In this document: piece by piece, positions 16,399 to 21,396 of the stretch
How positions within the stretch are numbered: position 1 is the first letter of the stretch
Layout of the letters: each line of letters opens with the position of its first letter
Assembly (NCBI GenBank): GCA_028284905.1
Contig: JANQQU010000086.1
Span: forward strand, 1 to 64,000
Length of the DNA stretch: 64,000 bases
DNA from: Calditrichia bacterium
Lineage (GTDB): Bacteria; Calditrichota; Calditrichia; RBG-13-44-9; J075
Direction: 5' to 3'
The notes under the pieces: generated by a model
The model's database searches: none
Told to the model about the DNA's origin: nothing
The model's input: the letters and a program-made list of their open reading frames with translations, nothing else
Position numbers and translations under genes: made by a program

Positions 16399-17952
16399 TC
16401 AAGCATCACCGTTTCTGTAGCGCAGTTTAACGCCAGCGACTATTAAACCGAGCACCAGGAATGTCCAGAATCCGGTTTCGACCATAGGACCAACCGGTGA
16501 GGGTTTCTGCAGGGTTGGAATGTGGATGCTATACCAGGAAGTCATGCCACGCTTATTACCGCGTTCTTTGTTGTAACCATCCCAAACGGTAAAAGCGATC
16601 GGGACGAACACATCTTCCTGGTCAAAGCTTACCGCACCTTCCTGTACACGCTTACGCTGGAAAATAACCGTCCACTGACCGTTATCATATTCCGACCAGG
16701 TTTGCAGATTTTGCTCTGCTGCCGGTTCCATGGATTTAATGCCTTTACCAACAATTACCTGTGCTTCCGATTTGGAAAGGTCAGAGTACCAGAGGTCGAC
16801 GGATAGTTTACTATCGCCGAACATCAAATACGGTTTTTCCGGACCGCCACTTTCCTGGGTCGGGAAAAATACTGCGACAGCATCGGAGTATTGTCCCATC
16901 GTATCCGGCGGGCTGTCCGGGGTGTAAATTGGTAGTTCAACCGAGGGATCGTTGCCACCGCTGGTTTCTGCGCTCATGTCGTGCCAGGTGAGCATAATGG
17001 CAATGTCATCTTCATTAACGATTGTCTGGATATTAATTGAATTCACACCGGGAAAAAATGCCCGGCCCGGTTCGACTACCTGACCAACCACAGGAAAAGT
17101 GGAAACCTCGGTGTTTTGAAAATAAGTCTGTTTCGCTGAGGCGACATCCTGAATGACGATGTCTCCTTTATAAGGCGTAGCAAAAGCGGCAACAGAATAA
17201 TTCGCTTCATTGTATTTATCATCAGTACCGCCGAGCGAGTAAACATAATCCACGAGTGCCCATTGGTCTTCGATTGGTTCAATACTGTAGGAAGGCATCG
17301 GAGACCCATCGAGACCGGTAATGAAAGTACGGGCAATATCGGTACGGGTCGCGCCGCCACGATAGGTCCAGCGCTTGGTTAAATCCGCCGGGCGGATCGG
17401 CTCATTCCACTGGTCAACCAGCGTCGGTGCGGATTTGCCATCGCCACGGCCATATTCGCCATGACAATCCAGGCATTGATTCTCCTCGTAAACCATTCTG
17501 CCCCGATCGCGGGAGGCATCGCTGTATGCCGGGGGGGATTGCAGATCGATTGACGGCGTGCTTCCATATTCCTCGAAGACATCCTGGGCAAATGTTTTAA
17601 GATAATAAGCAAGGTTGGTGAGCTCTTGATCGGAAAACTCCGGCCAGGCTGGCATGCCGGTGTATGGCATTCCTAAACGAATGCTGCGCTTAATGTCTTC
17701 AGTAGTAGGCAGTTCACCATTCGGTGTGCTGCGGAATTTATAGGTGGCAGCGGTAAAATCGCGTGGTTGCGGGCGAAAATAGGTTTTCGCCACACTGGCC
17801 GCATCACCTTCATAACCATGACATTGGGCGCATTTGTCATCATAAATCACTTTACCAGCGGCCCGTTGTGCATCGCTGCCCATAATATTCTGTTGGGCAT
17901 TCAGTTGAGTAAGAGCGAGGCAAAGAATTGCGAAAATGATTAAGTTTCTCAA
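16399..17952 (-). CDS. Di-haem cytochrome c with ethylbenzene-dehydrogenase-like haem-binding domain and C-terminal TM
   Basis: 517 aa; signal peptide; CAQCH and CLDCH; EB_dh-like region (NSINIQTIVNEDDIAIMLTWHD...AVAVFFP); C-terminal hydrophobic helix. Confidence 0.75.
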   Translation of the reverse strand: MRNLIIFAILCLALTQLNAQQNIMGSDAQRAAGKVIYDDKCAQCHGYEGDAASVAKTYFRPQPRDFTAATYKFRSTPNGELPTTEDIKRSIRLGMPYTGMPAWPEFSDQELTNLAYYLKTFAQDVFEEYGSTPSIDLQSPPAYSDASRDRGRMVYEENQCLDCHGEYGRGDGKSAPTLVDQWNEPIRPADLTKRWTYRGGATRTDIARTFITGLDGSPMPSYSIEPIEDQWALVDYVYSLGGTDDKYNEANYSVAAFATPYKGDIVIQDVASAKQTYFQNTEVSTFPVVGQVVEPGRAFFPGVNSINIQTIVNEDDIAIMLTWHDMSAETSGGNDPSVELPIYTPDSPPDTMGQYSDAVAVFFPTQESGGPEKPYLMFGDSKLSVDLWYSDLSKSEAQVIVGKGIKSMEPAAEQNLQTWSEYDNGQWTVIFQRKRVQEGAVSFDQEDVFVPIAFTVWDGYNKERGNKRGMTSWYSIHIPTLQKPSPVGPMVETGFWTFLVLGLIVAGVKLRYRNGDA

Positions 17953-18779
17953 TGTAATTCCTCCTTCGCTCTCGGTTCCTGATTGGTGAATTCATACATA
18001 AAAATGATCACATCCCATATTTCTTCTTCACTCAGGAATTTTTCCCAGGCAGGCATTGCGGATAACCAGGGAGTTGCTTCTGCCGGTAAACCGGGGCCAC
18101 CCTTAGCAATACGCCAGAAGAGATACGTTTCCTGCAACATTGCAATGGTTGTCGGATCACGGAAATTCGCCGGAATCGGATCAAATCCATGAGCGAAAAT
18201 ACCTCTGCCCGCCATATTATCGCCATGGCAATACACACAATTCTGAAAGTATACCCGGCGACCGTTTTCCACATGCTTGGCAAACTCGGCCGGATTATCC
18301 GTTTTCAGTGCGCGATAGGGATTTTCGTCTTCGATCAAATCGATCGTTTTCCCCTTAAATGTAATCGACGGTGGTGGGGGAGGGTGGATGGTTCGTGTCG
18401 ATAATGGCGGCTGCGGCGGTTGAGTCATATCGCTATAGACATTATAAGCGGAGACAACCGGGAGACCAATCATCACCAGGATCAACGGCAGCGCATATCT
18501 CGGATTTATAATGAAATTGACAAATGCACTTTTGGCGGCTTCCATGTCGTCGGTGCTTGTGGTGAGATAAGCGGCCAAAGCGAGAGAGACAATAAACATA
18601 AACATGCCGATAATTGATGCCGGCAGTGGGGGATTAATACCGTAACTCAATGCAAAATAGATTGCCAGCCACCAAATGACCATCCAGGCAACCACATTAA
18701 GCCGCAGGATATTCCTTTTCGAGAGCTGAGAAAATGCTACCATAACCAGCACGATAATTGCGACAGGAACTATATTCAT
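17949..18779 (-). CDS. Membrane-anchored mono-haem cytochrome c
   Basis: 276 aa; N-terminal TMs and CVYCH; overlaps neighbours by 1-4 nt. Confidence 0.82.
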   Translation of the reverse strand: MNIVPVAIIVLVMVAFSQLSKRNILRLNVVAWMVIWWLAIYFALSYGINPPLPASIIGMFMFIVSLALAAYLTTSTDDMEAAKSAFVNFIINPRYALPLILVMIGLPVVSAYNVYSDMTQPPQPPLSTRTIHPPPPPSITFKGKTIDLIEDENPYRALKTDNPAEFAKHVENGRRVYFQNCVYCHGDNMAGRGIFAHGFDPIPANFRDPTTIAMLQETYLFWRIAKGGPGLPAEATPWLSAMPAWEKFLSEEEIWDVIIFMYEFTNQEPRAKEELH

Positions 18780-19579: not shown

Positions 19580-21396
19580 GAACGAGCCTCCTCTGCTAGA
19601 CCATAAACATCATCAGAAGCATCTTTCGGTTCCCACTTCTTTTTGGTGGAAAGGCTGGATAACCAGAAGACGATAGCTATCAATGCGAAGAAAATCAGGA
19701 CAGTTACGGATACCACGCCGGCAGCAAAACCCAGTGTCGGAGTAAAAGCATGCGCGGAAGTATCTTCCATAATACCATAGACGTGATAATGCTGGCGCAA
19801 GCCGGCTCGTACATAACCCATCAGGCCCATCAGCCAGGTAAAGGTAATTGCCAGGAAAAAGAGCGCGTACTGAGCACGGGCTTTGATCTGCCCCCACTTG
19901 ATTTCACCTTTCGATTTCGCATTGCGGAACAAAAAGACATCAATGGCTGCAATCGATATCATGGCAAACAACACTGAAAGCACCTGCGGAACGGAGAAGC
20001 CGATGCGCGTGGTTGCATCTACGAAATATCCGGCGACACCAAGGACAATCACAAAGATTGTAACCACGGAAAATATCCCGAACTGAATATTCTTCAGTAG
20101 ACTGGCGCGGGGGTGGGTGGCCTCCTTATTCCCTCGACGATACAACAAAAAGCTCAGGTATGTTGTTAATATTAATACGTTTACCGCCGTATTTTTCGCG
20201 GACATTACCCCAAGAACACCGAGAATCGGGTGGTGAGCACCTCCCATCTTACGGGCTTCTTCGATCGAGGCAACCAGGGAGTGTGGTGTGGCCCAGACGA
20301 TAAAACAAATGGTGATGGAAGCGAGCAGCCATTTGATTGCTTTTCGATATCTTTCCGCACCTTCTATCCGCTCCATACTCACCCACAGATAATAATTGGC
20401 GCCAAGGAAAAGATTACCGATCAGCACTGCCTGAATAATGAATAGCCAGGAGAAGGTACCACCCATCATTACGATTCCGAGGGTTTGAGAATAGGCATAA
20501 ATCTCTTTACCAAGCCAGTAGCCGGCAAAAGGGAGGGGAAGGAAAGCGATGATCGCAATGAAATTGCCGATATAGCCCATCCAGTCGTAATGGGCCCGTT
20601 CTTCATCAGTCTTTGCCCCCAGAAATTTAAAGGCCCCGTAGGCCGCGGCAATTGACCCTCCAAACGCGACATTTGCAATCAGACGGTGAATATTAATCGG
20701 CATCCAGGTAAAGTTGTTAATCGCATCCCAGGTACTGATCAAAGCCCCGGTTTCCGTAACACCGGCTGGTGAATTCATGAAAGTGAGCCAGGCATTGGCA
20801 ATGAACATGATACCGGTGCCGACAATGTTCAGACCAATTCCCAGGGCAAGATGCACTTTCGGTGAAAACTTACCCCATCCATAGTAGTAACTATATAGAA
20901 ACCCCGCTTCCGCGAAAAACAAGAGCACATAGGGCAAAAACGTCCAGCTAAATATGTTAACCAGGTAACCCATTAAACGGGGGTAGAGAATTATCAAGGC
21001 AAATGTGAGCATGGCGCCCAGGGTTGCAGTGAAGGAAAAAGACGTAGATAAAAGCTTGGTGAACTCATAGGCGAGATCGTCATAGCGTTTATCGCCAGTA
21101 TAATAGCCGATAAACTCGATGATGACTGCAAACATCGGCACTGCTAATACGAATGCTGCAAACATCAGATGCAATTCTGCAATCATCCAAACCAGGACCC
21201 GGCTGCCTATTACCGGAAATTCCCGGTATTCCAGAGTGCCGCCATCGTCCATCGGCGCGCCGGCAGCATCTTTTTCCGCCAGGGCATTGGATAATTCGCG
21301 GGCAGCATCCCAGTTCGTCCAGAGGTGATTGAGCGCAATCAGCATCAGAACCACCACCACAGTCGCAATTAAATAGAAGGGTAACTTCTTCTTCAT
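19576..21396 (-). CDS. Cytochrome bd-superfamily CydA-like membrane subunit
   Basis: 606 aa, about 14 TM; AELHLMFAAF, FIANAWLTFMNSPAGV (compare CydA NGWMQNPVG), MPINIHRLIANVAFGG; no recognisable GRQPW; no cydB adjacent. Confidence 0.72.
   Translation of the reverse strand: MKKKLPFYLIATVVVVLMLIALNHLWTNWDAARELSNALAEKDAAGAPMDDGGTLEYREFPVIGSRVLVWMIAELHLMFAAFVLAVPMFAVIIEFIGYYTGDKRYDDLAYEFTKLLSTSFSFTATLGAMLTFALIILYPRLMGYLVNIFSWTFLPYVLLFFAEAGFLYSYYYGWGKFSPKVHLALGIGLNIVGTGIMFIANAWLTFMNSPAGVTETGALISTWDAINNFTWMPINIHRLIANVAFGGSIAAAYGAFKFLGAKTDEERAHYDWMGYIGNFIAIIAFLPLPFAGYWLGKEIYAYSQTLGIVMMGGTFSWLFIIQAVLIGNLFLGANYYLWVSMERIEGAERYRKAIKWLLASITICFIVWATPHSLVASIEEARKMGGAHHPILGVLGVMSAKNTAVNVLILTTYLSFLLYRRGNKEATHPRASLLKNIQFGIFSVVTIFVIVLGVAGYFVDATTRIGFSVPQVLSVLFAMISIAAIDVFLFRNAKSKGEIKWGQIKARAQYALFFLAITFTWLMGLMGYVRAGLRQHYHVYGIMEDTSAHAFTPTLGFAAGVVSVTVLIFFALIAIVFWLSSLSTKKKWEPKDASDDVYGLAEEARS

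What the first reader, a model, noticed from the sequence alone, without database searches (positions are those of the whole stretch)
16399..21396. CydA-like membrane protein with three c-type cytochromes and no CydB: candidate novel electron-transfer complex
Four overlapping genes (stop/start overlaps) encode a CydA-like 14-TM protein lacking a recognisable GRQPW quinol motif, a di-haem cyt c, a membrane mono-haem cyt c and a di-haem cyt c with an ethylbenzene-dehydrogenase-like haem domain. A canonical bd quinol oxidase needs CydB and the Q-loop. Divergent CydA-like families associated with cytochromes c have been noted in the bd superfamily, but this composition looks undescribed and could be a quinol:cytochrome c or cytochrome-linked reductase.
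Basis: partly seen in the sequence, partly recalled or inferred. Interest (0 to 1): 0.8.

Follow-up and report, generated by a model that had tools for sequence, protein, structure and literature searches.

The report
bd-like cytochrome complex with haem-maturation genes
The four genes encode a membrane complex related to oxygen-consuming cytochrome bd that probably takes electrons from small periplasmic proteins instead of quinols; the set is already known from nitrite-oxidising and anammox bacteria, but here it occurs without nitrite oxidation and travels with pigment-biosynthesis-like helper genes that no paper we could search links to it.

Summary
On the minus strand at 16399-21396, four overlapping genes encode a 14-helix CydA-like protein, a di-haem, a mono-haem and a di-haem/EB_dh cytochrome c, with no cydB in the cluster. 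"Undescribed composition" does not hold: the same set (bd-like oxidase, two cytochromes c, "alternative NxrC" with a TM helix and two haems) is reported from Nitrospira, Nitrospina and Kuenenia, and the protein is 46-51% identical to bd-like proteins of those groups versus 17-25% to canonical CydA. It keeps the H19 and H186 equivalents but not E99, M393, E445, the Q-loop or GRQPW. What looks new: (1) the cassette is intact in 77 of 80 loci from about ten phyla, often without nitrite oxidoreductase, as in this genome; (2) it is co-inherited with an accessory module (AhbD/NirJ-like radical SAM, universal-stress/rubredoxin protein with three PCP_red domains, NUBPL ATPase, Zn-ribbon-PCP_red protein). 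PCP_red occurs in 5/5 genomes of the phylum with the cassette and 0/36 without, and in 11/11 versus 2/89 in an Acidobacteriota class. Best reading: a periplasm-fed, non-quinol bd-type oxidoreductase, probably reducing O2, with dedicated haem maturation. The reaction is inferred, not shown.

The parts
19576..21396 (-). bd-like subunit (bdA), 606 aa, 14 TM helices, CydA N-terminal and C-terminal cores with four extra helices in place of the Q-loop and one extra N-terminal helix
18779..19579 (-). membrane-anchored di-haem cytochrome c (cytD), 266 aa
17949..18779 (-). mono-haem cytochrome c with four predicted TM helices (cytM), 276 aa
16399..17952 (-). alternative-NxrC-like protein: two cytochrome c domains (Met100 and Met219 conserved), EB_dh-like domain, C-terminal TM helix, 517 aa
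15008..16258 (-). accessory: radical SAM/SPASM protein of the NirJ/AhbD kind with a C-terminal PCP_red domain, 416 aa
13048..13485 (-). accessory: small four-helix-bundle protein without a named family, conserved at this place in Calditrichota and Rhodothermota
4057..6033 (-). accessory: universal-stress domains + rubredoxin-like domain + three PCP_red domains (true start probably 16 codons into the listed ORF, as in the 642-aa database entry)
3161..4057 (-). accessory: NUBPL/Mrp-type iron-sulphur carrier NTPase, 298 aa
2587..3108 (-). accessory: Zn-ribbon + PCP_red protein, 173 aa, matching the C-terminal domain of protochlorophyllide reductase subunit B
22078..22434 (+). context: HiPIP-type periplasmic electron carrier, divergent neighbour of bdA (a plastocyanin/azurin-type gene sits divergently near bdA in the relative L025)

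Best explanation
It is a member of the non-quinol, bd-like (OR-N-type) branch of the cytochrome bd superfamily, in a group closely related to the bd-like proteins of nitrite oxidisers and anammox bacteria. Shown: the four proteins form a conserved gene cassette; bdA has the CydA fold, keeps the His19 and His186 equivalents (H76, H237) plus R9, E107 and R448, has lost other canonical ligands and the Q-loop, and has no CydB. Inferred: electrons enter from the periplasm (HiPIP, cupredoxin or cytochrome c, reduced by alternative complex III or another donor), pass through the c haems of the NxrC-like, cytM and cytD subunits to haems near the periplasmic face of bdA, and reduce a small acceptor, most likely O2, with cytoplasmic protons. 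Also inferred: the linked PCP_red/radical-SAM/NUBPL proteins make, modify or insert haems of the complex.
For: Identity 46-51% over more than 550 aa to bd-like proteins of Nitrospinota, Nitrospirota, Brocadiales and Scalinduaceae, 17-25% to canonical CydA; split from canonical CydA 100/100 in the tree. H19, H186, E107 and R448 kept in 34/34, R9 in 33/34 (one gap). Foldseek top ten all CydA, E 2.6e-9 to 1.4e-6, probability 1.00. Cassette complete in 77/80 loci. HiPIP or cupredoxin gene next to the cassette; ActA/ActB genes upstream in 39/80 loci, Cox I/III/II genes in six. Some relatives are fused to a cytochrome c domain. PCP_red co-inheritance 5/5 v 0/36 and 11/11 v 2/89. Published descriptions of the related cluster: PMC3578206, PMC6606698, PMC10839748.
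Against: No reaction was tested here, and PMC10839748 says confirmation for the OR-N family is lacking. The b595 ligand E445, the b558 ligand M393 and E99 are replaced, so the canonical tri-haem site is not intact. Related proteins occur in anammox bacteria, described as strict anaerobes, where O2 reduction is unlikely. This genome already has an aa3-type oxidase, canonical cytochrome bd and alternative complex III. Physical association of the four proteins is not shown.
Confidence: 0.55

Rival explanations
1. Quinone-reactive electron-transfer complex: bdA has an alternative quinone site among its extra helices and works as a quinol:cytochrome c oxidoreductase, or in reverse (cytochrome to quinone, driven by the proton gradient), not as an oxidase.
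For: Proposed for the Nitrospina/Nitrospira relatives in PMC3578206 and PMC6606698; relatives in anammox bacteria; ligands of the O2-active site partly lost; in 39/80 loci ActA/ActB precede bdA, and in eleven such loci examined there is no ActC/NrfD-type quinol subunit nearby, so bdA may be the membrane partner of the ActAB wire.
Against: The canonical quinol-binding loop is absent and no new site is identified; this genome has its own alternative complex III in the same window.
Confidence: 0.27
2. NO or other small-molecule reductase or detoxification enzyme fed by periplasmic electrons.
For: Cytochrome bd reacts with NO (general knowledge); the N-terminus of the NxrC-like protein matches a di-haem cytochrome of known structure (6h5l_B, E 1.5e-44) which, from memory, is the partner of a Kuenenia nitrite-reducing HAO-like protein.
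Against: No nitrogen-cycle gene was seen conserved with the cassette.
Confidence: 0.1
3. An electron-accepting membrane anchor for a nitrite oxidoreductase, as suggested in nitrifiers.
For: Alternative NxrC subunit and conservation in nitrite oxidisers (PMC6606698).
Against: No NxrA/NarG-sized molybdoenzyme in this genome; five cassette genomes (G046, G047, G051, G054, G055) have no type II match at all; EB_dh haem-b Met/Lys candidates are not conserved.
Confidence: 0.04
4. Canonical cytochrome bd that lost CydB, or a decayed paralogue.
For: PF01654 hit; canonical cydAB elsewhere in the genome.
Against: Open frames, strong conservation across phyla, conserved cassette, 14-helix architecture.
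Confidence: 0.02

Closest known systems
bd-like_3 / alternative NxrC_2 cluster of Nitrospira moscoviensis and its counterparts in Nitrospina gracilis and Kuenenia stuttgartiensis (PMC6606698, PMC3578206)
   Same: 14-TM bd-like protein without Q-loop, two c-type cytochromes, NxrC-like protein with TM helix and two haem c motifs; 46-51% identity to bd-like proteins of those phyla/orders
   Different: Outside the clade that holds the nitrifier/anammox proteins; in genomes without NXR; tied to a PCP_red/AhbD-like/NUBPL module (whether the nitrifier clusters carry it was not tested); no second bd-like copy in this genome
OR-N family of the cytochrome bd superfamily (Murali 2021, as cited in PMC10839748 and PMC12342949)
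   Same: CydA-related, quinol site missing, cytochrome c proposed as donor, next to ACIII genes in some genomes
Canonical cytochrome bd (qOR, CydAB)
   Same: Fold, H19, H186, E107, R9, R448
   Different: No CydB, no Q-loop; E99, M393, E445 and GRQPW changed; five extra helices; three cytochromes c
Alternative complex III (ActA-F)
   Same: Multi-haem periplasmic arm; ActA/ActB genes precede the cassette in Acidobacteriota
   Different: No NrfD-type quinol subunit in the clusters examined; in the window ACIII is a separate gene cluster on the other strand
Dark-operative protochlorophyllide reductase (BchB/ChlB)
   Same: PCP_red domain shared with three accessory proteins
   Different: No catalytic PF00148 subunit in this genome

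Membership tests
Canonical cytochrome bd (qOR) | Axial His of the O2-side haem (H19) and of b558 (H186) | tested here: met
   H76 and H237, 34/34 each
Canonical cytochrome bd (qOR) | M393 (b558) and E445 (b595) ligands, E99 | tested here: not met
   E99 is Y in 34/34; E445 aligns with L; the M393 column has R in one alignment and mostly L in the other, so it is alignment-dependent but not Met in this group
Canonical cytochrome bd (qOR) | Periplasmic Q-loop | tested here: not met
   Four helices in the model between the equivalents of TM6 and TM7
Canonical cytochrome bd (qOR) | GRQPW | tested here: not met
   LRQHY here, mostly LRQHW in the family
Canonical cytochrome bd (qOR) | CydB partner | tested here: not met
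   The only CydB in the genome sits by the canonical CydA on C41
bd-like (OR-N-type) family of nitrite oxidisers/anammox | Sequence kinship closer than to CydA | tested here: met
   46-51% v 17-25% identity; tree split 100/100
bd-like (OR-N-type) family of nitrite oxidisers/anammox | 14 TM helices, helices in place of Q-loop | tested here: met
   feature from PMC3578206, which counts three inserted helices, four here
bd-like (OR-N-type) family of nitrite oxidisers/anammox | Cluster with c-type cytochromes and alternative NxrC | tested here: met
bd-like (OR-N-type) family of nitrite oxidisers/anammox | CydAA' pairing with a second bd-like subunit (proposed for OR-N1/N2) | tested here: not met
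   Only one bd-like and one canonical PF01654 protein in this genome
bd-like (OR-N-type) family of nitrite oxidisers/anammox | Placement in a numbered OR-N/OR-C clade | not testable with these tools
   Murali 2021 and its sequences not held
bd-like (OR-N-type) family of nitrite oxidisers/anammox | O2 reduction with cytochrome c as donor | not testable with these tools
   Needs biochemistry; PMC10839748 calls it unconfirmed for the family
NxrC / type II DMSO reductase gamma subunit | Family score and haem-b Met/Lys ligands | tested here: not met
   TIGR03477 82.5 bits v cut-off 169.85, although Pfam EB_dh is over its cut-off; M377 is M in 17/74, K467 K or R (ligand positions from memory of EbdC)
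Protochlorophyllide reductase (DPOR) | Catalytic subunit fold PF00148 | tested here: not met
   No PF00148 in the genome; only PCP_red shared

The most novel reading that the evidence does not exclude
The bd-like complex carries a specially made tetrapyrrole (for example a chlorin or otherwise modified haem) built and delivered by the co-inherited PCP_red/AhbD-like radical SAM/NUBPL proteins. This would be a dedicated cofactor pathway for a respiratory enzyme, unlike canonical haem d, which (general knowledge) is thought to form inside CydA.
Probability: 0.2. Interest if true: 0.8.

Novelty: new variant of a known kind. Interest (0 to 1): 0.55.

Why it matters
The bd-like complexes of nitrite oxidisers and anammox bacteria are an acknowledged puzzle in the papers cited. 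Finding the same cassette, intact, in about ten phyla and in genomes without nitrite oxidoreductase uncouples it from nitrite oxidation and may offer more tractable hosts (the universal-stress/PCP_red protein is present in the named species Rhodocaloribacter litoris; the cassette itself was not checked there). The tight link to tetrapyrrole-type helper genes makes a concrete, testable prediction about an unusual haem.

Tried and rejected
Rejected: canonical bd missing CydB (conservation and architecture); NXR anchor as the general function (hosts without NXR); chlorophyll synthesis (no PF00148); sigma-54 control of bdA (no -24/-12-like site upstream, window count as in shuffles). Literature searches for PCP_red genes with bd-like complexes found nothing; this is an open-licence library only, so absence is weak evidence. 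The Q-loop residues K252/E257 were dropped as evidence because their columns differ between the two alignments.
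Full report
What is there. On the minus strand four overlapping ORFs run from 21396 down to 16399: a 606-aa CydA-like protein, a 266-aa di-haem cytochrome c, a 276-aa mono-haem cytochrome c with four predicted TM helices, and a 517-aa protein with two cytochrome c domains, an EB_dh domain and a C-terminal TM helix. The host genome is 8.55 Mb. It belongs to the Calditrichota: its same-family genomes carry the contigs that are deposited as Calditrichia and Calditrichaceae MAGs (the identification through contig lengths is mine).

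Is the large protein CydA-like? Pfam Cyt_bd_oxida_I scores 79.8 bits, cut-off 26.2. The AlphaFold2 model (pLDDT 76.6, pTM 0.77) has 14 long helices. Foldseek against the PDB returns ten hits below E 0.001, all CydA subunits, TM-score 0.46-0.58 by target length. Against E. coli CydA and nine canonical CydAs, 34 family members keep H19 (H76), E107 (E163), H186 (H237) and R448 (R534) in all 34, and R9 (R66) in 33 with one gap; E99 is Tyr in all, E445 is not Glu, and GRQPW is LRQHY here. The M393 column depends on the alignment but is not Met in this group. Reading the model against the alignment, the stretch between the equivalents of TM6 and TM7, where the Q-loop should be, holds four helices, and there is one more at the N-terminus (inference).

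What it is related to. A search with a divergent paralogue found in locus L061 returned named homologues from Nitrospinota, Nitrospirota, Brocadiales, Scalinduaceae, NC10 and others. The window protein is 46-51% identical to these over more than 550 aa and 17-25% identical to canonical CydA. In the tree all bd-like proteins separate from canonical CydA with 100/100 support; the nitrifier/anammox-type group is one clade (99/100); the window's own group lies outside that clade but is not itself resolved as one clade. Luecker et al. 2013 (PMC3578206) and the N. moscoviensis study (PMC6606698) describe the same composition and the same missing Q-loop, so the composition is not new. Later papers place such proteins in the OR-N family and propose cytochrome c as donor, unproven (PMC10839748; PMC12342949).

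How widespread it is. A scan of one genome per species gave 389 relatives; the 80 best loci come from records named Calditrichia, Rhodothermia/Bacteroidota, Acidobacteriota, Gemmatimonadota, Myxococcota/Deltaproteobacteria, Verrucomicrobia, Fibrobacteria, Lentisphaeria, Hydrogenedentota and Acidimicrobiia (MAG binning not checked). All four genes are present in 77 of 80; of the other three, L063 and L082 end inside the cassette. Upstream partners vary: ActA and/or ActB in 39, Cox I/III/II or a part of it in six, none recognised in the rest, many of which are cut short. In eleven Act-type loci examined no NrfD-like protein lies beside ActAB.

Not tied to nitrite oxidation. The window genome has no molybdoenzyme of NxrA/NarG size and only weak type II matches (best 122 bits, cut-off 984.75). 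Of 46 cassette genomes none passes the type II cut-off, although three have proteins that come near it; five (G046, G047, G051, G054, G055) have no match at all. About a dozen have a NarG-sized protein, so nitrate respiration may be common but is not required.

The accessory module. Downstream on the same strand lie a NirJ/AhbD-like radical SAM protein with a PCP_red domain, a 145-aa four-helix protein, a universal-stress/rubredoxin protein with three PCP_red domains, a NUBPL-type NTPase and a Zn-ribbon-PCP_red protein, interrupted here by an MFS transporter, a sigma-54 activator and a 1651-aa secreted protein. The universal-stress/PCP_red gene is near the cassette in 61 of 80 loci, and 16 of the 19 without it end within 3 kb. 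In 41 genomes of the phylum PCP_red is found in exactly the five with the cassette (Fisher 1.3e-6). In 100 genomes of an Acidobacteriota class it is in all 11 with the bd-like gene (two of these matches partial) and in 2 of 89 without (Fisher 5.5e-13). Neither test corrects for relatedness. The Zn-ribbon protein matches the C-terminal domain of protochlorophyllide reductase B in the PDB (E 1.3e-5), yet the genome has no catalytic subunit of that enzyme. The AhbD-like gene is in four of four cassette genomes tested and none of three without. I found no paper linking these genes to bd-like complexes.

How it probably works. Periplasmic carriers may feed it: a HiPIP gene lies divergently 0.7 kb away, and a cupredoxin gene near the same place in a relative. 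The window also holds ACIII genes and an aa3-type oxidase; ACIII is a known quinol:cytochrome c/HiPIP oxidoreductase (PMC5928083). Electrons would run through the c haems (M100 and M219 in the NxrC-like protein, M114 in cytD and M242 in cytM are conserved and are the likely Met ligands) to haems at H76 and H237. The EB_dh domain probably does not bind haem b as NxrC does, since the candidate Met/Lys are not kept. O2 is the most likely acceptor by kinship, but the lost ligands and the anammox relatives leave a quinone-linked role open.

Verdict. A real, conserved complex of a known but unsolved kind, outside the nitrifier/anammox clade, with an apparently unreported maturation module.

Noticed in passing
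window 6435-11390 (-): 1651-aa protein with cohesin domain and a type IX secretion sorting tail in the middle of the accessory genes; not seen at this place in the relatives laid out (L025, L030, L044).
   Followed up: partly
window 39167-46791 (+): Alternative complex III genes (pentahaem ActA, ActB, NrfD-type ActC and a 433-aa cytochrome) in the same window as an aa3-type oxidase cluster (24290-29765).
   Followed up: partly
L061 2409-13735: Two bd-like cassettes back to back in a Myxococcota MAG: one of the window's type, one of the nitrifier/anammox clade.
   Followed up: partly
L034:8515-10680 and proteins P0108, P0113, P0120, P0178: bd-like proteins fused to a cytochrome c domain, which points to a cytochrome c input.
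   Followed up: no
L096, L057, L088 and most Acidobacteriota loci: ActA-ActB of alternative complex III directly upstream of the bd-like cassette with no ActC nearby: a possible hybrid complex.
   Followed up: partly
window 47517-48728 (+): Fusion of a CDP-alcohol phosphatidyltransferase domain and a DoxX domain.
   Followed up: no
G001:C1:1141323-1141970, G030:C417:3835-4374, G017:C110:13696-14301: Other weak PF01654 matches (41-56 bits) in same-phylum genomes, perhaps further divergent bd-type families.
   Followed up: no
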